DNA from: Actinotalea alkalitolerans
GTDB lineage: Bacteria > Actinomycetota > Actinomycetes > Actinomycetales > Cellulomonadaceae
DNA length: 64,000 bases
Direction of reading: 5' to 3'
NCBI RefSeq assembly: GCF_023369855.1
Contig: NZ_JAMBPP010000007.1
Span: 111,486-175,485, forward strand
Both the position numbers and the translations under genes were made by a program. Shown in pieces: positions 5,483 to 54,134 of the stretch; positions within the stretch are counted from its first letter, which is position 1, and every line of letters starts with the position of its first letter. The notes under the pieces are model-generated. The model was not told the DNA's origin. It did not search any database and was given only the letters and a program-made list of their open reading frames with translations.

Positions 5483-6213
5483 CCACGCTCGGACCGGTGC
5501 TCCTGCGGCTCGCCCAGGTCACCCGCACCCACGGCCATGGCGAGCTGACCGTGCATGCGCTGCGCAGCGTCGACCTCGAGGTCCGGGTCGGCGAGCTCGT
5601 CGCCGTGATGGGCCCGTCGGGCTCGGGCAAGTCCACCCTGCTGAACATCGCCGGTGGGCTGGACAGCCCGACCTCGGGGACCGTGAGCCTGGCTGACGCG
5701 CAGCTGTCCGGGCTGGACCTCAAGGCGCGGGCCCGGCTGCGTCGTCGCAGCGTCGGATACGTCTTCCAGGACTTCAACCTGATCCCCGCGCTCACGGCCG
5801 CGGAGAACGTCTCGCTCCCCCGCGAGCTCGACGGGGTCTCGACCCGCCCGGCACGTGTCGAGGCGCTCGCGGCCCTGGCCGACGTGGGGATCGCCGAGCT
5901 CGCCGACCGTTTCCCCGACGAGCTCTCGGGCGGGCAGCAGCAGCGGGTGGCGATCGCCCGGGCGCTGGTCGGGCCTCGTCGGCTGGTCCTTGCCGACGAG
6001 CCCACCGGGGCGCTCGACTCGGTGACCGGGGAGGACGTCATGCGTGTGCTCCGCGCCCGCGTCGACGCCGGCGCTGCCGGGCTGCTGGTCACGCACGAGG
6101 CTCGGTTCGCGGCCTGGGCCGACCGCACGGTGTTCCTGCGTGACGGTGTCGTGGTGGACTCCACCGGTCCGCGGCCCGACGTCGAGGCGCTGCTCACCCT
6201 CGATCCGGCGTGA
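5479..6213 (+). CDS. ABC transporter ATPase, MacB/LolD type (244 aa)
   Basis: Powers the partner permease encoded next. Walker A GPSGSGKST is at residues 45-53, the Q-loop lies in YVFQDFNLIP, the ABC signature LSGGQQQR starts at 149, and Walker B plus D-loop is VLADEPTGALD. This combination is typical of the MacB/LolD/FtsE-like group that works with FtsX-type permeases to extrude antimicrobials, lipoproteins or peptides rather than import. GTG start overlaps the padR stop. The H-loop reads LLVTHEARFAAWADR, so all catalytic motifs are present. Confidence 0.9.
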   Translation: MTTLGPVLLRLAQVTRTHGHGELTVHALRSVDLEVRVGELVAVMGPSGSGKSTLLNIAGGLDSPTSGTVSLADAQLSGLDLKARARLRRRSVGYVFQDFNLIPALTAAENVSLPRELDGVSTRPARVEALAALADVGIAELADRFPDELSGGQQQRVAIARALVGPRRLVLADEPTGALDSVTGEDVMRVLRARVDAGAAGLLVTHEARFAAWADRTVFLRDGVVVDSTGPRPDVEALLTLDPA

Positions 6214-9002
6214 TGAGCCGCGGAGCGGCACCGTGGAGAGCCGTGCTCCGCATCGCACGGCGCGACGCGGCACGGTCCAGGGGGCGGACGGCCCTGATCG
6301 CCGTCATGGTGGGCCTGCCGGTGCTCGCGGCGGTCGTCATCGTGGTGCTGCTTCGTTCTTCGACGCCCGGAGACGCGCTGTTCACCCGGCTCATGGTGGG
6401 GGAGGTTACGCAGGCCCGGCTCAGCTACCACTGCCCGGCCGCGATCGTGCAGGACGTGCGTCAGAGCGTCGGGTGCTCCTACGACGAGTCGCGGGTCCAG
6501 GACCCGACGCTCGCGGAGATCGAGGACGACGTCCGGGCCGTCCTGGGTGACGACGCAGGGCTCGTCCGCCTCGACGGGCGACGGGCCCTTCTCACCACGA
6601 CGGACCGGTCGAGCCGGGCCGGGTACGGCGAGGTCGACCTGCTCGGTCCGGTCGGCGGGGTCTTCGAGCCGGTCGTGGGTGACCTCCCGGCGCGGGCCGG
6701 TGAGGTGCTGATCAGCTCCTGGCTCGCCGAGGACCTCGGTGTCGGAGTGGGTGAGGAGCTCGGGCTGCGGGCGGTTGGTGAGCCCGAGCAGCGGGTCCGG
6801 GTCACCGGGATGCTGCATCCCTTCGTCGAGGGTCCCGATGTGCTCGCGCTGCCCGGCACGCTGCTGCCCACGGCCGCGCAGGACGTCGATCTCGCCCCGC
6901 TGGCTGCCCAGTGGGGTGTCGAGTGGTGGGTGACCGGAACGGATCCCGTCACCTGGGACCACGTGGTCGCCCTGAACGACCTGGGCCTGCTGGTCCGCAG
7001 TCGTGCTGTGCTCGCCGACCCTCCGCCGCGCTCAGCGATGCCGCTGCACACGGACGGCGAGCTCGTGCAGGGAGGCACCTCGGCGCGGACGGCCCTGCTC
7101 GTGGCGGCAGTGGTGGGCGCGGGTCTGCTCGAGGCGGTGCTGATCGTGGGCCCCGCCTTCGCCGTGGGGGCACGGCGCTCCTCGCGCGAGCTCGCACTGC
7201 TCGCGGCGCACGGCGGGGACCGTCGAGACCTGCGGCGACTCGTGCTGTGGAACGGGGTCGTCATCGGGCTGGGCGCGTCGGTCGTGGCCGCCGTCCTGGG
7301 GGTCGGTGCAGGAGCGGCCCTGGTGACGTGGCTCCCGGTCGGCGCGGGCGCGTTCCCCAACCTCGTGGTGCCCTGGCTGGAGATCCTCGGGCTGATCGCC
7401 CTCGGCACCGGGATCGCCGCGGCCGCGGCCTGGCTCCCCGCGCACCGGGCGTGCCGGGTCGACGTCGTCGCGGCGCTCAGCGGACGGCGGGCCGAGGCCG
7501 CACCGCACCACGGGGTCCCCGTCGTGGGCCTCGTGCTGCTCGGCATCGGCACGGCCGCGGCCGTCTCAGGTGCCCTGCGCGCGCAGTCCGGCTTCGCGGT
7601 CGCCGGAGTCCTGCTGCTGCTCGTCGGGATGGTCGCGACCTCGGGTGCCGTGGTCACGCTGCTCGGCCGGGTCGCACGGTGGGCGCCCACCGCCCTGAGG
7701 TTCGCCCTGCGGGACACCGCACGGCAGCGGGGTCGGACAGCACCCGCGGTCGCCGCGGTCATCGCGGCGGTCGCCGGGGCGACCGCCGGCCTGGTGTTCC
7801 TGACCTCGAGCGACCACCACGACCGGCTGACCTGGGCACCGATCGCGGCGGAGGGCACCGTGCACATCGCGGTGCACCCCGATGAGCTCGACGACGTCGA
7901 CCGGGCCGGGCTCGTCGCACGGGCCGGGGCAGCCTTCGAGGACGTCGCGCCGCTCGCCACCTCGGCCGTGGTGCGGATCCTGACCGTCGCCGAGCCCGAT
8001 CCTGCGTCCATGAGCCTCAGCGTGTGGGCCGAGCGCCCGGTCGAGGCCATGTGCCCGGTGTGGCTCCTCGAGCGGCAGGCCACCCAGCAGGAGCTCGCGG
8101 ACGCGCAGGACGACCCGCGCTGCGAGCCCGGTGGGTCGGTGCTCTCCTCCAACCCGTACTCGGTGGGGTTCGGCAGCGTGCTCGTCGACGACGGGACCGT
8201 GGTGCGGACCCTCGGCCTGCCGGAGGCAGGGGAGGCCGCCGCGGCGCTCGCAGGGGGTGCGGTGCTGGTCAACGACGCGGCGGCGCTGTGGGCCGACGGC
8301 ACCGTGCACCTCACCTTCTCGGTCTACGACATGGACGGCTCGGGCGATCCGCACGAGGAGGAGCTGGTCCTGCCCGGTCACGTCGTGGGAGCCCGTGGCT
8401 CGCTCTACGGCGTGGTGCTGCCGATGGGCGCGTGGGAGCGGCTCGAGACCCTCGACCTCGTGCCGGTCGAGGCCGGGGTGGTCGGGACCACCACGGAGCC
8501 GCTGGCCCGGGACACGCTCGAGGCCGCCACCCAGGCGGTGGCTGACGCGATCGGTCCGGTCGCGAGCGGCGTCGAGGTCGAGAGCCCGTGGGTGACCGGT
8601 CAGGACGTCACGATGCTCGTGGTGGTCGCTGTGGCGGTCGTCCTGGGGCTCGCCGCGACCTGGATCGCCGTCGGCCTGGCGGCCGCCGAGTCGAGGGCAG
8701 ACCTCGCGACCCTTGCCGCGGTCGGGGCCTCACCGCGCACCCGGCGGACGGTCGCGGGTGCGCAGGCCGGGGCGATCGCCGGGACCGGGGTGGTCCTCGG
8801 AGCCGTCGCGGGGCTGCTGCTCGGCGCCGTGTTCGTGCTGGTCCGCAGGGGGCAGGGGTTCTCCGCCGACCCGACGTGGCAGGTCGTGCTGCCGTGGGCC
8901 GAGGTCGCATCGGTGGTGATCGGCCTGCCTGCCCTGGCCGTCGGTGCGGCGATGCTGCTGACCCGCTCACGGTTGCCCCTGAGTCTTCGGGGCTCGGCAT
9001 GA
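6213..9002 (+). CDS. FtsX-like ABC transporter permease (929 aa)
   Basis: Membrane partner of the preceding ATPase. An N-terminal transmembrane helix (~25-50, ALIAVMVGLPVLAAVVIVVL) is followed by a ~240-residue external domain. A membrane block with FtsX-like segments follows (around GARRSSRELALLAAHGGDRR), then a second external region (~550-790) and a C-terminal membrane block (LATLAAVGASPRTRR). The two FtsX domains are fused in tandem, as in actinobacterial export permeases. The ATG at 6213 overlaps the ATPase stop by one base; a GTG one codon earlier is also possible. Substrate unknown; the PadR context suggests inducible export or envelope-stress defence. Confidence 0.85.
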   Translation: MSRGAAPWRAVLRIARRDAARSRGRTALIAVMVGLPVLAAVVIVVLLRSSTPGDALFTRLMVGEVTQARLSYHCPAAIVQDVRQSVGCSYDESRVQDPTLAEIEDDVRAVLGDDAGLVRLDGRRALLTTTDRSSRAGYGEVDLLGPVGGVFEPVVGDLPARAGEVLISSWLAEDLGVGVGEELGLRAVGEPEQRVRVTGMLHPFVEGPDVLALPGTLLPTAAQDVDLAPLAAQWGVEWWVTGTDPVTWDHVVALNDLGLLVRSRAVLADPPPRSAMPLHTDGELVQGGTSARTALLVAAVVGAGLLEAVLIVGPAFAVGARRSSRELALLAAHGGDRRDLRRLVLWNGVVIGLGASVVAAVLGVGAGAALVTWLPVGAGAFPNLVVPWLEILGLIALGTGIAAAAAWLPAHRACRVDVVAALSGRRAEAAPHHGVPVVGLVLLGIGTAAAVSGALRAQSGFAVAGVLLLLVGMVATSGAVVTLLGRVARWAPTALRFALRDTARQRGRTAPAVAAVIAAVAGATAGLVFLTSSDHHDRLTWAPIAAEGTVHIAVHPDELDDVDRAGLVARAGAAFEDVAPLATSAVVRILTVAEPDPASMSLSVWAERPVEAMCPVWLLERQATQQELADAQDDPRCEPGGSVLSSNPYSVGFGSVLVDDGTVVRTLGLPEAGEAAAALAGGAVLVNDAAALWADGTVHLTFSVYDMDGSGDPHEEELVLPGHVVGARGSLYGVVLPMGAWERLETLDLVPVEAGVVGTTTEPLARDTLEAATQAVADAIGPVASGVEVESPWVTGQDVTMLVVVAVAVVLGLAATWIAVGLAAAESRADLATLAAVGASPRTRRTVAGAQAGAIAGTGVVLGAVAGLLLGAVFVLVRRGQGFSADPTWQVVLPWAEVASVVIGLPALAVGAAMLLTRSRLPLSLRGSA

Positions 9003-47596: not shown

Positions 47597-48019
47597 ATGC
47601 TGCGGACGATGATGACCGGCAAGATCCACCGGGCCACGGTGACCCACGCCGATCTCGACTACGTCGGGTCGATCACCCTGGACGCCGACCTGATGGCCGC
47701 TGCCGACCTGCTCCCGGGCCAGCAGGTCGACGTCGTGGACATCACGAACGGTGCGAGGCTGACCACCTACGCGATCGCCGGGGAGGCCGGGTCGGGGGTC
47801 GTGGGGATCAACGGCGCCGCCGCCCACCTGGTGCACCCGGGGGACCTCGTGATCGTCATCTCCTACGGTGTCCTGACGGACGCCGAGGCGCGCACCTACG
47901 CCCCGCACGTGGTCCACGTGGACGCTGCGAACGCGATCGTCGAGATCGGCGGCGACCCGGGGGCGGCGCCCGCGGGGCTCCGGTCGGAGGCGACCGACTG
48001 GGCCGCGGGCCCGCGATGA
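47597..48019 (+). CDS. panD: Aspartate 1-decarboxylase proenzyme (140 aa)
   Basis: Makes beta-alanine for pantothenate; cleaves itself between Gly24 and Ser25 (DLDYVGS) to create the pyruvoyl group. The start at 47597 gives [19 protein letters not shown] and puts the cleavage site at exactly the positions of E. coli and Mycobacterium enzymes, which is why I prefer it over the ATG at 47591 or GTG at 47588. [21 protein letters not shown] is the other hallmark. AGGAAGGA lies 11 bases upstream. Confidence 0.93.
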
Positions 48020-49755
48020 GCACGGTGCGGCTCGCCCGTCGCCTCGCGGCGCCCGAGCCGGGATGGACGACCTCGGCCGACGTGGTCGTGGTCGGCTCGG
48101 GCATCGCCGGCCTGACCGCAGCACTGCGGCTGCGCAGCCGCGTGCCCAGGGTGCTGCTGGTGACCAAGGGTGCGCTCGGCTCGGGCTCGACGATGTGGGC
48201 GCAGGGGGGGATCGCCGCGGCGCTGCACCCCGAGGACTCCCCGGCGGCGCACCACGCGGACACGCTGGCGGCCGGTGGAGGGCTGTGCGACCCCGCAGCG
48301 GTCGACGTGCTCGTCACCGAGGGCCCCGGGCGGGTGCGGGAGATGGTCGCGCAGGGTGCGCGCTTCGACACCGACGCCGACGGGACCCTGGCGCTGACCC
48401 GTGAAGGGGGCCACGGGGCGGACAGGATCGTCCACGCGGGGGGTGATGCGACGGGGGCCGAGATCTCCCGGGCGCTGATCGCCCAGCTCGACGCGGTGCG
48501 CACCGATCCCGGGATCGAGGTCATCGAGCACGCGTTGGTGCTCGACCTGCTGACCGGCCCGAGCGATGCCGACGGCCGACCCGGGCCGGTGTGCGGGGTC
48601 ACGCTGCACGTCATCGGCGAGGGCACGCGGGACGGCGTCGGCGCGGTGCTGGGCCGTGCCGTGGTGCTGGCCACCGGAGGCATCGGGCAGGTCTTCCAGT
48701 CGTCGACCAACCCCGCGCAGGCCACCGGGGACGGGCTGGCGGCGGCGCTGCGGGCAGGAGCCCTGGTCGGTGACGTCGAGTTCGTGCAGTTCCACCCGAC
48801 CGTGCTGTGGATGGGTGCCGGGGTCAAGGGGCAGCTGCCGCTGGTCTCGGAGGCGGTGCGGGGGGAGGGGGCGCTGCTGCTCGACACCGACGGCTTCCGC
48901 TTCATGCCCGAGGTGCACCCGCTGGCCGAGCTCGCTCCGCGCGACGTCGTCGCGCACGCGATCGTCCGCCGGATGGCTGCCACCGGCTCCGACCACGTCT
49001 TCCTGGACGCCCGGCACCTGGGCGGGGACTTCCTGGCGCGACGCTTCCCGACCATCGCCGACCGGCTCGGGGCCGAGGGGATCGACCTCGCGACCGACCT
49101 GGTGCCGGTCGCCCCTGCCCAGCACTACCACTCGGGAGGCGTGGTCACCGACCTGCACGGCCGGGCCTCGGTGGACGGCCTGTACGCCGTCGGGGAGGTC
49201 GCGTGCACCGGGGTGCACGGGGCCAACCGGCTGGCCTCCAACTCGTTGCTCGAGGGCCTGGTCTTCGCCCACCGGGCCGCGACGCAGGTGGCCGAGCGGG
49301 TCACCTCGGGTGACCTCCCTCAGCTCGAGCCGCAGCAGCGCGGGGGTGAGCCGACCCTGGTCGCGGCCACGGTGCGCACCCGGGTGCAGCGGATCGCGCA
49401 GAACGGGCCGGGGGTGATCCGCACCGCCGAGGGGCTCGCGGAGGCGGCCCGTGCGCTGGCCGCGGTTCACACCCGGGCGCACGAGGTGCCCGGGGTCGTG
49501 GCCGCCCCGCAGACCGCGGAGTGGGAGACCACCAACGTCCACCAGGTCGCCACGGTGCTGACCGCTCTCGCCGCCGAGCGCACCGAGAGCCGGGGAGGGC
49601 ACTACCGGCAGGACTTCCCCGCCGCGGACGAGGCCTGGCGGTTACGGCTGGTGGCGGGCATCGACCCGGACGGGTCGATGCCGATCACTCACTCGACGGG
49701 GTACCCCGCTGCTCGCCAGGCGCCCGTTCCGCCCGCCACGTTGGCCACGTCGTAG
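48016..49755 (+). CDS. nadB: L-aspartate oxidase (579 aa)
   Basis: FAD enzyme that oxidises aspartate to iminoaspartate for NAD synthesis. FAD motif [18 protein letters not shown] (about residues 23-40), [12 protein letters not shown], and the active-site region [11 protein letters not shown]; later [18 protein letters not shown]. The last ~22 residues (after DGSMPITHS) are encoded antisense to the C-terminus of the rhodanese gene and do not look conserved. nadC, its usual neighbour, lies 3.5 kb away beyond the sulfur cassette. No nadA is present in the window. Confidence 0.93.
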
Positions 49756-50006
49756 CCCTGCTGTCCCAGCCACGCGGTGACCTGCGCCGAGCGTCCACCC
49801 GACTCGCAGATGAGGTAGACCTCGCCGGGCAGGCTGGTGACCTCGGTGACGCGGTCGACGAACTGCGTCAGCGGGATGCTGAGCGCCCCGGGGACGTGAC
49901 CCGCGGCGTACTCGTGGTCCTCGCGGACGTCGATCACGGTGCGGGCGGTCGTCGTCTCGGGGTCCCCGAGCAACCCGTGCAGGGTGGGGGTGTCGATCTC
50001 GCGCAT
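49689..50006 (-). CDS. Single-domain rhodanese (105 aa)
   Basis: Sulfurtransferase that carries a persulfide on Cys67 (YLICESGGRSAQ). The CDC25-like loop and VIDVREDHEYAAGHVPGA show a complete rhodanese domain. ATG with GAGGAAG upstream, 10 bases after the CoA-disulfide-reductase/rhodanese gene. Last gene of the cassette; its 3' end overlaps the nadB 3' end by 67 bases on the other strand. Confidence 0.9.
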   Translation of the reverse strand: MREIDTPTLHGLLGDPETTTARTVIDVREDHEYAAGHVPGALSIPLTQFVDRVTEVTSLPGEVYLICESGGRSAQVTAWLGQQGYDVANVAGGTGAWRAAGYPVE

Positions 50007-50016
50007 CGGTTCTTCC

Positions 50017-51699
50017 TCAGGTGGTCCGGTCGGTGACGAGGGCCAGGTCGGGACGGGCCGCCCGCAGGGTCAGCATGCCACCGGAGAGGTTCGCGGAGTC
50101 GAACCCGGCGTGGTCGAGCACGCGGTGAGCCAGGTAGGAGCGGAACCCGCTCGCGCAGTGGACCCGCACGGGACGGTCCCCGGCGGCGGTCCGCACCTCC
50201 TCGAGGCGCTGACGGAGCTCGGTGTGCGGGATGTTCAGGGCCCCCGGCAGGTGGCCACCGGCGTACTCCGCGGGGGAGCGCACGTCGAGCACCAGCATGG
50301 TGTCCAGCACCTTCTCGAGGTCCTCGGGGTACCAGAGACGCAGGGAGCCGTCGAGCACGTTCTGCGCGACGAAGCCCGCCATGTTGACCGCGTCCTTGGC
50401 CGATCCGTAGGGCGGGGCGTAGGCGAGCTCGAGCTCGGCGACGTCGTCCATGGTGAGCTGCGCGGTCAGCGCGGTGGCGAGGACGTCGATGCGCTTGTCG
50501 ACGCCTTCACGGCCGACCGCCTGGGCACCCAGCAGCCGTCCGTCGAGTGCGAAGGTGACGGTCAGGTGCACCTGCTCGGCGCCGGGGAAGTACCCGGCGT
50601 GGTGGCCGGGGTGCACGTGGACCACGTGGTGGGGGACACCGCTGGTGCGCAGGGTGTGCTGGGAGGCGCCGGTCAGGGCGGCGGTGAGCCCGAAGACCCG
50701 CACCACCGCGGTGCCGAGCACCGGCCGCGCGGCACGGGCCGGGTCGAGCCGCCCGAGCAGGGAGTCGGCCGCGCGTCGGCCCTGGCGGTTGGCCGGCCCG
50801 GCGAGGGGGACGGGGGCGAGGGTCCCGGTCACGCCGCGGACGGCGGTCGCGTCGCCGACGGCCCAGATGTGGGAGTCGGAGGTGCGCTGGGTCGCGTCGA
50901 CGACGATCGCGCCCCCGGGGGTGGTCTCGAGCCCGGCCTGTGTCGCCAGGGAGCTGTCGGGCCGGACCCCGACGGACAGCACGACGACGTCGGCCGGCAG
51001 ACGGGCGCCGTCGGACAGCGCGACCTCGACCGCGTGGTCGGCGCCGGGGGTCGCGACGACCGACTCGGCGGCGACGCCGACGCGGGTCCGTACGCCGTGG
51101 GCGTTGAGCTCGTCGTCCACGAGCTGCGCGAGCTCGCTGTCCAGGGGCGGCAGCACGTGCGGGGCGAGGTCCACCAGGTCGACCTCGAGGCCGCGCAGCC
51201 GCAGCGCCTCGGCGGCCTCGAGCCCGATGAACCCGGCGCCCAGCACGACAGCGCGCCGCGCACCCTGGTCGACCAGTGCGCGCAGGGTGTCGGTGTCGGG
51301 GACGGTCCGCAGGGTGTGGACCTGGGGCAGGTCGAGCCCGGGGACCGGGGGGCGGATCGCGGTCGCACCGGGAGCCAGCACCAGGGCGTCGTAGTCGAGG
51401 TCCTGGGTCCCGGCGGCCGAACGGACGGTCACGATGCGTCGGACGGGGTCGATCGAGGTCGCCTCGTGACCGGTGCGCACGTCGAGGTCGAGGGAGGCAC
51501 GGAGCGACTCGGGGGACTGCAGGAGCAGCGAGGACCGGTCGGTGATCTCCTCGCCCAGGTGGTACGGCAGCCCGCAGTTCGCGAACGACACGTAGGGACC
51601 GCGTTCGAGGACGGTGATCTGCGCGTCCTCGTCGAGCCGCCGGGCGCGGGCGGCCGCGCTCATGCCGCCGGCGACTCCGCCGATGATGACGATCTTCAT
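50017..51699 (-). CDS. CoA-disulfide reductase/persulfide reductase fused to rhodanese (560 aa)
   Basis: N-terminal pyridine nucleotide-disulfide oxidoreductase (~1-450): FAD motif VIIGGVAGGMSAAARARR, the redox Cys42 in SFANCGLPYHLG as in CoA-disulfide reductases, NAD motif VVLGAGFIGLEAAEALRL, and the AYAPPYGSAKDAVNMAG dimer region. The C-terminal rhodanese has active Cys515 in VHCASGFRS. Such fusions reduce CoA persulfides or polysulfide with NAD(P)H to release sulfide, and are hallmarks of cst-type operons. ATG preferred over a GTG four codons earlier. It has its own operator and -10 box at 51746-51764. Confidence 0.92.
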   Translation of the reverse strand: MKIVIIGGVAGGMSAAARARRLDEDAQITVLERGPYVSFANCGLPYHLGEEITDRSSLLLQSPESLRASLDLDVRTGHEATSIDPVRRIVTVRSAAGTQDLDYDALVLAPGATAIRPPVPGLDLPQVHTLRTVPDTDTLRALVDQGARRAVVLGAGFIGLEAAEALRLRGLEVDLVDLAPHVLPPLDSELAQLVDDELNAHGVRTRVGVAAESVVATPGADHAVEVALSDGARLPADVVVLSVGVRPDSSLATQAGLETTPGGAIVVDATQRTSDSHIWAVGDATAVRGVTGTLAPVPLAGPANRQGRRAADSLLGRLDPARAARPVLGTAVVRVFGLTAALTGASQHTLRTSGVPHHVVHVHPGHHAGYFPGAEQVHLTVTFALDGRLLGAQAVGREGVDKRIDVLATALTAQLTMDDVAELELAYAPPYGSAKDAVNMAGFVAQNVLDGSLRLWYPEDLEKVLDTMLVLDVRSPAEYAGGHLPGALNIPHTELRQRLEEVRTAAGDRPVRVHCASGFRSYLAHRVLDHAGFDSANLSGGMLTLRAARPDLALVTDRTT

Positions 51700-51745
51700 G
51701 TGAGTCCTCACGTGTGGCGTGCTGGGTCGGGTTGCTCCGGGCAGA

Positions 51746-51764
51746 ACTATACCCCTGGGGGTAT
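51746..51764 (-). promoter_or_regulatory. CsoR/CstR-type operator overlapping a TATAGT -10 box (site 2)
   Basis: ATACCCCTGGGGGTAT (51749-51764) has perfect 7-base arms around two central bases. Read on the minus strand it continues directly into TATAGT (51746-51751), 47 bases upstream of the CoA-disulfide-reductase/rhodanese ATG. The far side of the operator abuts the stop codon of the methyltransferase gene. Confidence 0.85.
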
Positions 51765-52406
51765 CTATTCCACGCGGGACCTGGGTCCTGGGGCCGTGGC
51801 CACCACGACCGTGTCGAGGGCCGGCCGGGTCGCACCCTCCACGGGCCGGTCGGCGACCTGCGCGAGCGTCACGTCCAGGCCCGCCGTGCTGAGCGCGGCG
51901 ACCACACGGTCCGGGTCGGTCAGCACGGCTGGGTCCTGCGGGCCGCCGACCCCCTCGGCCAGGTTCCGTTCGTCGTGGCCCACCACCACGATGGTCCCGC
52001 CCGGCGCGAGCGCGTCCGCAGCGCGCCCGAGCACCGACCGCAGGGCGGGCTCGGGCAGGTGCAGGTACGCGACCACCACGAGGTCGACGCTCGCGGGGGC
52101 AGGGGTGTGCGTGGTGAGGTCCGCAGCCGTCCAGCGGACCGTGCCCACCGGTCGGCCGTCAGGGCTGCTGGTCGGCAGCGACGAGGCCTCGGCGCGACCG
52201 CGGGCGAGCGCCTCGCGGGAGAAGTCGACGGCCTCGACCTGCCAGCCTCGGGCGGCGAGCCACAGCGCATGGCGGCCGTCCCCCGAGGCGAGGTCCAGCG
52301 CGCGCCCGGGAGGCAGGTCCTGGGTGTGCTGTCGCACCCACCTGTTCGGCTGCTTGCCCCAGGGGGCAGCGGCGGCGTAGCGCTCGTCCCAGTCGGCCGT
52401 GTCCAT
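51765..52406 (-). CDS. Class I SAM-dependent methyltransferase in the sulfur cassette (213 aa)
   Basis: SAM-binding motif I RALDLASGDGRHALWLAARG (about residues 35-54) and VEAVDFSREAL follow a MDTADWDERYAA...WGKQPNRWV N-terminus common to TehB/thiopurine-methyltransferase-like enzymes, which methylate small thiols, selenium or tellurium compounds. It lies 7 bases after the regulator gene and probably shares its mRNA. Substrate is unknown; its setting suggests a sulfide or thiol acceptor (inference). ATG used; the frame opens at a TTG one codon earlier. Confidence 0.82.
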   Translation of the reverse strand: MDTADWDERYAAAAPWGKQPNRWVRQHTQDLPPGRALDLASGDGRHALWLAARGWQVEAVDFSREALARGRAEASSLPTSSPDGRPVGTVRWTAADLTTHTPAPASVDLVVVAYLHLPEPALRSVLGRAADALAPGGTIVVVGHDERNLAEGVGGPQDPAVLTDPDRVVAALSTAGLDVTLAQVADRPVEGATRPALDTVVVATAPGPRSRVE

Positions 52407-52413
52407 CAACGGC

Positions 52414-52677
52414 TCAGGCGAGCGAGAGGAAGAGCTTCTGGAGCTTGGCGCGGTCGATGCCGGCCGCCTCGTCGCCCAGGGTGATGCACTGCTCGAGGCC
52501 CGTGGCGATGATCGCGAACCCTGCCCGGTCCAGCGCCTTGGACGCCGCCGAGAGCTGGGTGACGACGTCGGCGCAGTCGGCGCCCTCCTCGAGCATCCTC
52601 AGGACGCCGCCGATCTGTCCCTGGGCTCGGCGCAGCCGGTTCATGACGGCCGTCAGTTCCTCGGGGTCGAGCTGCAT
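52414..52677 (-). CDS. cstR: CsoR-family regulator, CstR-type persulfide sensor (87 aa)
   Basis: All-helical DUF156 repressor: MNRLRRAQGQIGGVLRMLEE then ADCADVVTQLSAASKAL. CsoR copper sensors use Cys-X24-His-X3-Cys. Here Cys35 and Cys64 keep the 29-residue spacing, but position 60 is Gly instead of His. Loss of the His with both Cys kept is the CstR pattern, in which the cysteines form di- to tetrasulfide links with persulfides and DNA is released. The ATG at 52677 has AGGAGG 6 bases upstream; a longer form starting at 52728 overlaps the rhodanese stop. Operators of this family flank both promoters of the cassette. Confidence 0.88.
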   Translation of the reverse strand: MQLDPEELTAVMNRLRRAQGQIGGVLRMLEEGADCADVVTQLSAASKALDRAGFAIIATGLEQCITLGDEAAGIDRAKLQKLFLSLA

Positions 52678-52724
52678 CGTGGGCCTCCTCGGGCCGCCGG
52701 GGACGGCCGTCTCGTGTGGTGTCG

Positions 52725-53078
52725 TCATCGGGTCACGACGTCTCCGCCCGCGGCGCGCCAGGCGGCGAGCCCACCGGACAGGCTGGTGGCACGGTATCCC
52801 TCTGCGCGCAGCCGTGCTGCGGCGCCACGCGAACGCATGCCCGACGCGCACATCACCACCACGGCACGGTCCTTGGGCAGGCGGCGCGCCTCGGAGTCCA
52901 GACGGCCCAGGGGGATGTGCCTGGCCTGCCTCGCGTGCCCTGAGCGCCACTCCCCGGGCTCGCGCACGTCGACCAGCAGGGCGCCGTCGCCGAGGAGGTC
53001 CAGCGCGCGGTCGACCCGGACGGTCCGTGGCAGGGCGTCGGGGTCGCGACGCAGGATCCGGTCGAGGAGCGAGGGCAT
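52725..53078 (-). CDS. Single-domain rhodanese, first gene of the cassette (117 aa)
   Basis: Rhodanese domain with LLVDVREPGEWRSGHARQA and active-site Cys77 in VMCASGMRSRGAA. About 20 extra N-terminal residues precede the domain (MPSLLDRILRRDPDALPR). The ATG has GGAAGG upstream and is 40 bases from the operator/-10 element at 53115-53133. Probably accepts or delivers persulfide sulfur alongside the fusion enzyme. Confidence 0.9.
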   Translation of the reverse strand: MPSLLDRILRRDPDALPRTVRVDRALDLLGDGALLVDVREPGEWRSGHARQARHIPLGRLDSEARRLPKDRAVVVMCASGMRSRGAAARLRAEGYRATSLSGGLAAWRAAGGDVVTR

Positions 53079-53114
53079 GGGCACGCCTTCCGTCGTGGGG
53101 TCCGATCGGTGCTC

Positions 53115-53133
53115 ACTATACCCCCATGGGTAT
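53115..53133 (-). promoter_or_regulatory. CsoR/CstR-type operator overlapping a TATAGT -10 box (site 1)
   Basis: ATACCCCCATGGGTAT (53118-53133) is an ATACCC-N4-GGGTAT dyad. On the minus strand it runs into TATAGT (53115-53120), the same arrangement as at 51746-51764. It drives the rhodanese-cstR-methyltransferase part. nadC starts 93 bases away on the other strand. Confidence 0.85.
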
Positions 53134-53225
53134 CGGTCCGGCGTGCGGAGGCTCGGCTGGGAGGGCGTCGGGCCCGCGGTGGTCGCGCGCGCGGGACCGG
53201 CCGAGCGCTCGGTAGCGTGGCCCCC

Positions 53226-54134
53226 GTGACCACCGACCTCGCCGGCGTCTGGACCCGGATCATCGCGACCGCCCTCGACGAGGACCTCGGGCCGGCCCCC
53301 GGACGTGATGTCACGACCCAGGCGACCATCTCTGCCCTGGCCACCGGGACCGCGCACCTGGTCGCCCGCCAGGACGGCGTGGTCGCCGGGCTCGTGCTGG
53401 TCGACGAGGTCCTGACCCAGGTCGCCGGGCGGCTCGGCCAGGGCGCCGTCGCGGTCGAGCAGGTCGTCGCAGACGGCGCCGTCGTCCAGGCCCACGACGT
53501 CCTGGCCGTCCTCACCGGCCCGGTGCAGGTGCTGCTCGTGGCCGAGCGGACCCTGCTCAACCTGACCAGCCGGGCCTCGGGTGTCGCGACCCACACCCGA
53601 CGCTGGGCCGATGCGCTGGCCGGTACCGGGGCGAGCGTGCTGGACACCCGCAAGACCACGCCCGGCCTGCGGGCGCTCGAGAAGTACGCGGTGCGCTGCG
53701 GCGGCGGGACCAACAAGCGGATGGGCCTGTACGACGTCGCGATGGTCAAGGACAACCACGTGGTCGCGGCCGGGTCGGTCGCACGAGCGGTGGCCGCGGT
53801 GCACGAGCACTTCCCCGACGTCGAGGTCCAGGTCGAGGCCGACACCCCCGAGCAGGCCATGGAGGCGCTCGACGCGGGCGCCCGTTTCCTGCTGCTGGAC
53901 AACATGACCACGCCGGTCCTGACCGAGGTCGTGGCGGCGGTCCGCGCCCGGGAGGTCGAGACCGGGCACGTCGAGCTCGAGGCCACCGGCAACCTCACCC
54001 TCGACCGTGCGGCCGAGGTCGCGGCGACCGGTGTCGACCACCTCTCGGTGGGCGGTCTCACCCACTCGTCGCCGATCCTGGACCTGGCGCTCGATCTCGT
54101 GGCGAGCGACCTCGCGACCTCGCCGCCTCGGTAA
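53226..54134 (+). CDS. nadC: Nicotinate-nucleotide pyrophosphorylase, carboxylating (302 aa)
   Basis: Converts quinolinate and PRPP to nicotinate mononucleotide, CO2 and PPi. Motifs: GRDVTTQATI near the start, LLNLTSRASGVATHTRR, LDTRKTTPGLRALEKYAVRCGGGTNKR, and MVKDNHV. GTG start; ends in TAA, unusual in this window. Separated from nadB by the minus-strand sulfur cassette. lysS follows after 9 bases. Confidence 0.95.
   Translation: MTTDLAGVWTRIIATALDEDLGPAPGRDVTTQATISALATGTAHLVARQDGVVAGLVLVDEVLTQVAGRLGQGAVAVEQVVADGAVVQAHDVLAVLTGPVQVLLVAERTLLNLTSRASGVATHTRRWADALAGTGASVLDTRKTTPGLRALEKYAVRCGGGTNKRMGLYDVAMVKDNHVVAAGSVARAVAAVHEHFPDVEVQVEADTPEQAMEALDAGARFLLLDNMTTPVLTEVVAAVRAREVETGHVELEATGNLTLDRAAEVAATGVDHLSVGGLTHSSPILDLALDLVASDLATSPPR

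What the first reader, a model, noticed from the sequence alone, without database searches (positions are those of the whole stretch)
49689..53133. CstR-type sulfur cassette inserted between nadB and nadC
nadB and nadC are normally adjacent. Here five minus-strand genes separate them: rhodanese, CsoR-family regulator, SAM methyltransferase, CoA-disulfide-reductase/rhodanese fusion, rhodanese. Three rhodanese domains, a persulfide reductase and a CstR-like sensor define a persulfide/sulfide stress system. It lacks the persulfide dioxygenase, sulfide:quinone reductase and TauE exporter of known cst operons and has a methyltransferase instead, so its chemistry may end in reduction or methylation rather than oxidation.
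Basis: partly seen in the sequence, partly recalled or inferred. Interest (0 to 1): 0.75.

Follow-up and report, generated by a model that had tools for sequence, protein, structure and literature searches.

The report
Persulfide-sensor operon between nadB and nadC
An actinobacterium related to Actinotalea carries, between two vitamin-synthesis genes, a small gene set that looks built to sense and clear reactive sulfur; it appears to be one branch of a genome-wide sulfur-stress regulon whose oxidation genes sit elsewhere, and its one unusual member is a methyltransferase that may methylate sulfide or persulfides.

Summary
The regulator is CstR-like: both sensing cysteines, no copper histidine; a second CsoR with Cys-His-Cys lies elsewhere. 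The key inference fails: a rhodanese, persulfide-dioxygenase-type and TauE operon stands behind the same palindrome on another contig, and an SQR cluster lies beside a further copy. The cassette is thus probably the reductive branch of a dispersed CstR regulon, not a replacement for oxidation. Its core matches the Enterococcus faecalis cst-like operon. In the genus, 14 of 19 genomes have this regulator between nadB and nadC with varying companions, and one metagenome contig has all five genes and both palindromes without nad genes, so the nad position looks incidental. The methyltransferase is the interesting part: optional (8 of 14) but also found beside CstR, PDO or TauE genes in other actinomycetes. 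An MddM1-like role (H2S/methanethiol S-methylation) is plausible but was not tested by sequence. New variant of a known kind.

The parts
48016..49755 (+). nadB (L-aspartate oxidase), left flank, convergent; 67-bp overlap with the first rhodanese gene
   Evidence: NCBIfam NF005867 781 bits, over cut-off 639
49689..50006 (-). single-domain rhodanese (rhdA), last gene of the CDR transcript
   Evidence: PF00581 56.4 bits
50017..51699 (-). CoA-disulfide/CoA-persulfide reductase fused to a C-terminal rhodanese domain
   Evidence: best PDB match 8a56 E. faecalis CoA-persulfide reductase, 507 bits over residues 2-551, both Cys motifs (SFANCGLPY; rhodanese CxSGxRSY) kept in the alignment; PF07992, PF00581
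51749..51764 (.). operator-like palindrome ATACCCCTGGGGGTAT, 49 bp before the CDR start codon, next to the methyltransferase stop
   Evidence: exact match
51765..52406 (-). class I SAM-dependent methyltransferase, 213 aa; candidate H2S/thiol/persulfide S-methyltransferase (no signal-peptide or membrane predictor was run)
   Evidence: PF13649 52.5 bits, PF05724 TPMT 26.7 (cut-off 26); model pLDDT 93.8; best fold Slr1183 3mer
52414..52728 (-). CstR-like CsoR-family repressor; Cys52 and Cys81; Gly77 where copper CsoR has His (true start may be Met18, about 52677)
   Evidence: PF02583 78.4 bits; in the best 80 homologues both Cys kept in 80 of 80, His at that position in 0 of 80
52725..53078 (-). 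single-domain rhodanese (rhdB), first gene of the rhdB-cstR-methyltransferase transcript; stop overlaps the cstR start (ATGA)
   Evidence: PF00581 62 bits
53118..53133 (.). operator-like palindrome ATACCCCCATGGGTAT, 39 bp before rhdB and 92 bp before nadC on the other strand
   Evidence: exact match
53226..54134 (+). nadC (quinolinate phosphoribosyltransferase), right flank, divergent from rhdB
   Evidence: TIGR00078 278.9 bits, over cut-off 198.4

Best explanation
This is the regulator-bearing, reductive branch of a dispersed CstR regulon. CstR represses two transcripts here (rhdB-cstR-methyltransferase and CDR-rhdA) and probably five more elsewhere by binding ATACCC-N4-GGGTAT at their promoters. 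When persulfides or polysulfides modify Cys52 (and/or join Cys52 to Cys81), CstR lets go. The rhodaneses pass sulfane sulfur between carriers; the CDR-rhodanese fusion reduces CoA persulfide to CoA plus H2S, protecting the CoA pool; H2S and persulfide then go to SQR, to the PDO-rhodanese enzyme and out as sulfite through TauE (genes on other contigs, PDO-TauE behind the same palindrome). The methyltransferase most likely S-methylates H2S, a small thiol or a persulfide, an additional outlet. Shown here: gene families, palindromes, cysteine pattern, neighbours of the palindromes, conservation. Inferred: DNA binding, inducer, enzyme substrates, transcripts, methyltransferase activity.
For: Nine exact palindromes in the 4.37-Mb genome against 0 for the reversed control pattern (0.07 expected for independent letters); 7 of the 9 stand at sulfur/thiol genes: the two here, a rhodanese beside DsrE/DsrC/SQR, an 836-aa CDR-rhodanese-TusA-DsrE fusion, a thioredoxin, a thioredoxin-DUF302 pair, and rhodanese-PDO-TauE. 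In congener G009 all five of those other target sets recur with an exact palindrome, in G006, G010 and G002 parts of them. S. coelicolor ScCsoR binds ATACCn6GGTAT, represses PDO, rhodanese, a sulfite transporter and itself, and is modified at Cys37 by sulfane sulfur (PMC7533328, passages). E. faecalis CstR controls RhdA, RhdB and CoAPR (PMC9405070, passages); our reductase's best PDB match is that CoAPR. The genome's other CsoR over the Pfam cut-off has Cys-His-Cys and its best NCBIfam match is RicR (139.7 bits, below that model's cut-off of 175), which would leave copper to it.
Against: No expression or binding data. The palindrome is not exclusive to CstR: in G005, where one search found no close CstR, the only exact site lies 206 bp before a P-type ATPase with a His-rich N-terminus, copper-type by eye; of our nine sites one overlaps the 5' end of tRNA-Gln and one precedes a glutaminase. 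In the window genome SQR itself has only a one-mismatch site 112 bp upstream, and about one site of up to two mismatches is expected by chance in that stretch. 'PDO' rests on domain make-up (metallo-beta-lactamase plus two rhodanese domains); no NCBIfam model reached its cut-off for it. The reductase does not reach the NCBIfam CoA-disulfide reductase cut-off (405.6 against 578.8 bits). One search counted a third, weaker match to the regulator in this genome that I did not examine.
Confidence: 0.82

Rival explanations
1. One reading: a self-contained persulfide system without oxidation, whose chemistry ends in reduction or methylation.
For: No PDO, SQR or TauE in the nadB-nadC interval; a methyltransferase is present; E. 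faecalis has a cst-like operon described as two sulfurtransferases plus CoAPR.
Against: PDO-type, TauE and SQR genes are in the genome, PDO-TauE directly behind the same palindrome; congeners G009 and G006 carry both the methyltransferase cassette and a PDO gene with the palindrome.
Confidence: 0.07
2. Copper-responsive CsoR operon that happens to carry rhodaneses.
For: The regulator belongs to the CsoR family and the ScCsoR palindrome is reported to resemble copper CsoR and RicR sites; in G005 the lone site is before a copper-type ATPase.
Against: The copper His is Gly here and in 78 of 80 homologues, Ser or Asn in the other two; the genome has a separate Cys-His-Cys CsoR; 7 of 9 sites are at sulfur or thiol genes, the other two at a glutaminase and a tRNA.
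Confidence: 0.05
3. The methyltransferase is a bystander with another substrate (for instance a heterocyclic or metabolite methyltransferase) co-transcribed by chance.
For: Present in only 8 of 14 csoR-bearing nad loci of the genus; 18 of the 29 best-matching loci in the class show no sulfur-gene neighbour (several are cut by contig ends); nearest folds are Slr1183 and the M. tuberculosis heterocyclic toxin methyltransferase.
Against: Beside CstR, rhodanese, PDO, TauE or the palindrome in other groups (L087, L104, L105, L157 which is probably the same contig as L255, L242/L271, L245/L274, L248, L250/L278, L251/L279, L262), while 20 lower-identity homologues have no such neighbour within 6 kb.
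Confidence: 0.4

Closest known systems
Enterococcus faecalis cst-like operon (CstR, RhdA, RhdB, CoAPR; PMC9405070, passages)
   Same: CstR-type repressor, two single rhodaneses, CoA-persulfide reductase-rhodanese fusion; no PDO, SQR or TauE named for the operon in the passages seen
   Different: Here two palindrome-bearing transcripts, an added methyltransferase, and a genome that also has PDO-type, TauE and SQR genes
Streptomyces coelicolor ScCsoR circuit (SCO0618 PDO, SCO0620 regulator; PMC7533328, passages)
   Same: Same operator ATACCn6GGTAT, same regulator type, same rhodanese-PDO-TauE target set (here on contig C31)
   Different: Regulator not beside PDO here but in a separate cassette with the persulfide reductase
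Staphylococcus aureus cst operon (cstR, tauE, cstA, cstB, sqr; composition recalled)
   Same: CsoR-like sulfane-sulfur repressor and sulfurtransferases
   Different: Targets here dispersed over several contigs
Bacillus licheniformis YrkD cluster (PMC9918477, passages)
   Same: CstR-type repressor over a gene cluster with SQR and PDO
   Different: One 11-gene cluster with a second, NreBC, control layer
MddM1, H2S/methanethiol S-methyltransferase of Actinomycetota (PMC12904073; abstract, sections 2.2-2.5, 3 and the bioinformatics method)
   Same: Size (210 against 213 aa), class I SAM methyltransferase, common in Actinomycetota; mddM1 transcription is raised by H2S
   Different: Sequence identity not tested; the paper's main text has no occurrence of CsoR, rhodanese or gene cluster

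Membership tests
CstR (CsoR-like sulfurtransferase repressor) | CsoR-family (PF02583) fold | tested here: met
   78.4 bits against cut-off 22.8
CstR (CsoR-like sulfurtransferase repressor) | two conserved cysteines, no copper-ligand His four residues before the second (His position recalled, and seen in the CsoR rows) | tested here: met
   Cys52, Cys81, Gly77; among the best 80 of 254 relatives 80 keep both Cys and 0 have His
CstR (CsoR-like sulfurtransferase repressor) | operator ATACC-N6-GGTAT at its own and target promoters | tested here: met
   sequence only; binding not tested
CstR (CsoR-like sulfurtransferase repressor) | release of DNA by persulfide/polysulfide | not testable with these tools
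   needs EMSA/fluorescence anisotropy
Canonical cst operon with PDO, TauE and SQR in the cluster | PDO, TauE, SQR genes next to cstR | tested here: not met
   absent between nadB and nadC; present on other contigs
E. faecalis-type cst-like operon | cstR with two rhodaneses and a CoAPR | tested here: met
CoA-persulfide reductase (CoAPR) | CDR domain plus rhodanese domain, both catalytic Cys | tested here: met
   near full-length alignment to 8a56
CoA-persulfide reductase (CoAPR) | reduction of CoA persulfide to CoA and H2S | not testable with these tools
   enzyme assay needed
Copper CsoR/RicR | Cys-His-Cys copper site | tested here: not met
   Gly in place of His; RicR model 45.3 bits against cut-off 175
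MddM1 | at least 40% identity over 70% to MddM1 (the paper's criterion) | not tested
   no MddM1 sequence was reachable; PP661493 or F2RA35 would be compared
MddM1 | S-methylation of H2S and methanethiol | not testable with these tools
   enzyme assay needed

The most novel reading that the evidence does not exclude
A CstR-controlled S-methyltransferase is a third, non-oxidative and non-reductive exit for reactive sulfur in actinomycetes: persulfide stress switches on reduction (CoAPR), oxidation (SQR/PDO/TauE) and methylation (to methanethiol/dimethyl sulfide or methyl persulfides) together, which would tie bacterial volatile methyl-sulfide output directly to a persulfide sensor.
Probability: 0.45. 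Interest if true: 0.55.

Novelty: new variant of a known kind. Interest (0 to 1): 0.36.

Why it matters
It shows how an apparently incomplete stress operon can be completed in trans through a shared operator, so that judging chemistry from one locus misleads. It also puts a methyltransferase that may act on sulfide or persulfide behind a persulfide sensor, giving a testable switch for when such bacteria emit methylated sulfur. I found no paper that links a methyltransferase to a CstR operon of this kind, but the search was limited: (CstR, rhodanese, methyltransferase, CsoR together) listed one paper, the Thermus TTHA1953 study, where the sites bound in vitro include one near a methyltransferase gene that is not among the units listed as repressed in the passages seen; one search listed 18 papers of which I opened none for this; one search listed four papers naming MddM1, of which I opened one, whose text has no CsoR or rhodanese.

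Tried and rejected
Rejected: (1) 'No oxidation branch': contradicted by the genome-wide palindrome search. (2) Copper sensing: the His is missing and a separate Cys-His-Cys paralogue exists. (3) A gamma-glutamyltranspeptidase as regulon member: its 'operator' (C30:139360), seen also in G009 and G010, overlaps the 5' end of tRNA-Gln; I first noted it as a target in notebook entry 5 and corrected it in entry 6. (4) A meaning in the nad location: other genera have unrelated genes in the same gap (L219 a decarboxylase-like and a transporter-like gene, L226 a hydantoinase-like gene, named by eye only), and L087 has the five-gene cassette with both palindromes and no nadB or nadC hit in its 12 kb. 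(5) Counting CDR by whole-protein hits: most of those hits are rhodanese-domain matches; the domain-wise recount is PDO metallo-beta-lactamase domain 51 of 80, TauE 51, CDR domain 11, methyltransferase 10. (6) The fold search of the methyltransferase did not discriminate: thiopurine methyltransferase is not among the 50 rows listed. (7) The CsoR tree has only 92 columns and an unsettled bootstrap; the genus's nad-adjacent regulators cluster (with L086, L087, L104), G039's sits on a very long branch, so one or two arrivals at nad cannot be told apart. (8) The promoter/terminator consensus scan of 49500-53400 found nothing.

The methyltransferase association depends on the counting. Loose count (any of CstR, PDO, TauE, rhodanese, palindrome, DUF302, thioredoxin): 11 of 29 best-matching loci against 0 of 20 low-identity controls, two-sided p 0.0014. 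Strict count (without DUF302 and thioredoxin): 7 of 29, p 0.03. Among the 20 fetched with up to 6-kb flanks: 7 of 20 loose (p 0.008), 4 of 20 strict (p 0.11). The 29 had 1.5-kb flanks (6 kb for those 20) and the controls 6 kb; several top loci are cut short by contig ends, one control clearly is. Six of the ten methyltransferase-bearing loci among the 80 are congeners already counted (equal contig lengths), so the two counts are not independent.
Full report
WHAT IS THERE. Five minus-strand genes lie between nadB (48016-49755) and nadC (about 53226-54134): rhodanese 49689-50006, CoA-disulfide reductase fused to rhodanese 50017-51699, class I SAM methyltransferase 51765-52406, CsoR-family regulator 52414-52728, rhodanese 52725-53078. 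Two exact palindromes ATACCC-N4-GGGTAT stand at 51749-51764 and 53118-53133; no other site with up to one mismatch to ATACC-N6-GGTAT is in the window, and shuffles give 0.08 on average. The first lies 49 bp before the reductase start, the second 39 bp before the rhodanese start at 53078, which suggests two transcripts: rhodanese-regulator-methyltransferase and reductase-rhodanese. The second palindrome also lies 92 bp before nadC on the other strand.

THE REGULATOR. Cys52 and Cys81 are 29 residues apart, as are Cys37 and Cys66 of S. coelicolor ScCsoR (PMC7533328, passages). Residue 77, where copper CsoR proteins have His, is Gly. In the best 80 of 254 relatives both cysteines are kept in 80 of 80, and the His position is Gly in 78, Ser in 1, Asn in 1. 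The genome's only other PF02583 match (C34:76940) has Cys-His-Cys and its best NCBIfam model is RicR, below cut-off. ScCsoR binds ATACCn6GGTAT and is modified at Cys37 by sulfane sulfur; that is the palindrome found here.

THE REGULON. Nine exact palindromes occur in 4.37 Mb against none for the reversed control. Their neighbours: the two in the cassette; C2:93707 before a rhodanese with a lipoprotein-like leader (by eye), next to DsrE-like, DsrC and a type III SQR (NF049943, 610.9 bits, cut-off 525); C2:121900 before an 836-aa CDR-rhodanese-TusA-DsrE fusion; C2:140804 before a thioredoxin; C11:314136 before thioredoxin-DUF302; C31:65413 before rhodanese - metallo-beta-lactamase/double-rhodanese protein (PDO-type) - TauE; C2:110822 about 10 bp before the likely start of a glutaminase; C30:139360 overlaps tRNA-Gln and is discarded. 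So 7 of 9 are at sulfur or thiol genes. In congener G009 thioredoxin-DUF302, rhodanese/DsrE/DsrC/SQR, the 836-aa fusion, the thioredoxin and rhodanese-PDO-TauE all recur with a palindrome; G006, G010 and G002 show parts of the set, and G010 has a palindrome before SQR itself (20 stretches from G002, G005, G006, G009 and G010). All 19 genomes of the genus searched have at least one exact site, 111 in all by adding the rows, control 0; an unknown number of these are tRNA-Gln ends. Against exclusivity: in G005, without a close CstR, the single site precedes a copper-type ATPase.

CONSEQUENCE. PDO-type and TauE genes sit behind the same palindrome elsewhere.

THE REDUCTASE. Best solved relative is E. 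faecalis CoA-persulfide reductase 8a56 (507 bits, residues 2-551 of 560), both cysteine motifs kept. In E. faecalis CstR controls RhdA, RhdB and CoAPR, and CoAPR reduces CoA persulfide to CoA and H2S (PMC9405070, passages). The cassette core is that operon.

THE NAD SITE. In 19 genus genomes the nadB-nadC interval carries CsoR in 14, with reductase, rhodaneses and methyltransferase in varying sets (methyltransferase in 8 of 14; G011 has CsoR alone; G017 keeps only a piece of the reductase). Four (G002, G005, G008, G012) have the first rhodanese without CsoR, three of them with one further gene; G015 shows rhodanese plus palindrome at a contig edge. Only the window has all five there, but G003, G004 and G015 are cut by contig ends. 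In 20 other genera one (G039) has reductase-methyltransferase-CsoR there, one (G033) the rhodanese only, 12 have nadB within 250 bp of nadC; the remaining six have other genes, a gap of about 1 kb, nadB and nadC converging, or no nadB in the fetched stretch. A metagenome-assembled Actinomycetales contig (L087) carries palindrome-rhodanese-CsoR-methyltransferase-palindrome-reductase-rhodanese with no nadB or nadC hit in 12 kb. The unit seems portable; nad is where it sits in this genus.

THE METHYLTRANSFERASE. 213 aa, no paralogue of comparable similarity in the genome (next hit E 6.6e-4). Confident model (pLDDT 93.8); closest folds Slr1183, then the M. tuberculosis heterocyclic toxin methyltransferase, TehB further down. 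Relatives at E at most 1e-15 in 212 of 394 genomes of the class. Among the 29 best-matching loci 11 have CstR-regulon type genes or palindromes nearby (7 on a strict count), against 0 of 20 low-identity controls with 6-kb flanks. It lies near CsoR in 10 of the 80 loci, six of them congeners; the others are L087, L104, L105 (Trebonia, with thioredoxin-DUF302 and palindromes) and L157, where it shares a cluster with PDO and TauE; L271 and L278 show CsoR, PDO, rhodanese, TauE and methyltransferase together. PMC12904073 describes MddM1, a 210-aa cytosolic H2S and methanethiol S-methyltransferase predicted in 51% of Actinomycetota genomes, its transcription raised by H2S, without activity on CoA, cysteine or glutathione (sections read). 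Mammalian TPMT methylates hydrosulfide, polysulfides and persulfides (PMC13089183, abstract and outline). This makes S-methylation of H2S, a small thiol or a persulfide the likeliest role, unproven; identity with MddM1 was not tested.

VERDICT. A CstR-type persulfide cassette of E. faecalis kind plus a methyltransferase, part of a dispersed regulon that does include oxidation genes. A sound and useful annotation of moderate interest; the methyltransferase link is the part worth a bench test.

Noticed in passing
window 53118-53133 and nadC 53226-54134: The palindrome lies in the divergent nadC promoter region in genomes that carry the cassette, so nadC may have come under CstR influence.
   Followed up: no
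L012:14314-16824 (genome contig C2:119314-121824): 836-aa fusion of CoA-disulfide reductase, rhodanese, TusA and DsrE-like domains directly behind an exact palindrome; conserved with its palindrome in G009 (L200).
   Followed up: partly
L012 about 5853-6944 (contig C2 about 110.85-111.94 kb): A glutaminase gene seems to start about 10 bp after an exact palindrome; whether relatives share this was not examined.
   Followed up: no
L011:8638-9924: The SQR matches NCBIfam's 'selenoprotein subtype' type III SQR model over its cut-off although the ORF reads through without an in-frame stop.
   Followed up: no
L015:4361-4376; L198; L209: The 5' end of tRNA-Gln plus the preceding bases forms an exact copy of the operator palindrome; a trap for motif scans in this genus.
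   Followed up: yes
L202:2957-3223; L206:3079-3834: In G006 further exact palindromes lie at a YgaP-like membrane protein and before a DsbD/CcdA-like protein, possible extra regulon members.
   Followed up: partly
L155: A contig titled Sporosarcina (Bacillota) carries a CsoR that groups with Arthrobacter/Paeniglutamicibacter sequences: transfer or contamination.
   Followed up: no
window 49689-49755: nadB and the convergent rhodanese gene overlap by 67 bp at their 3' ends.
   Followed up: no
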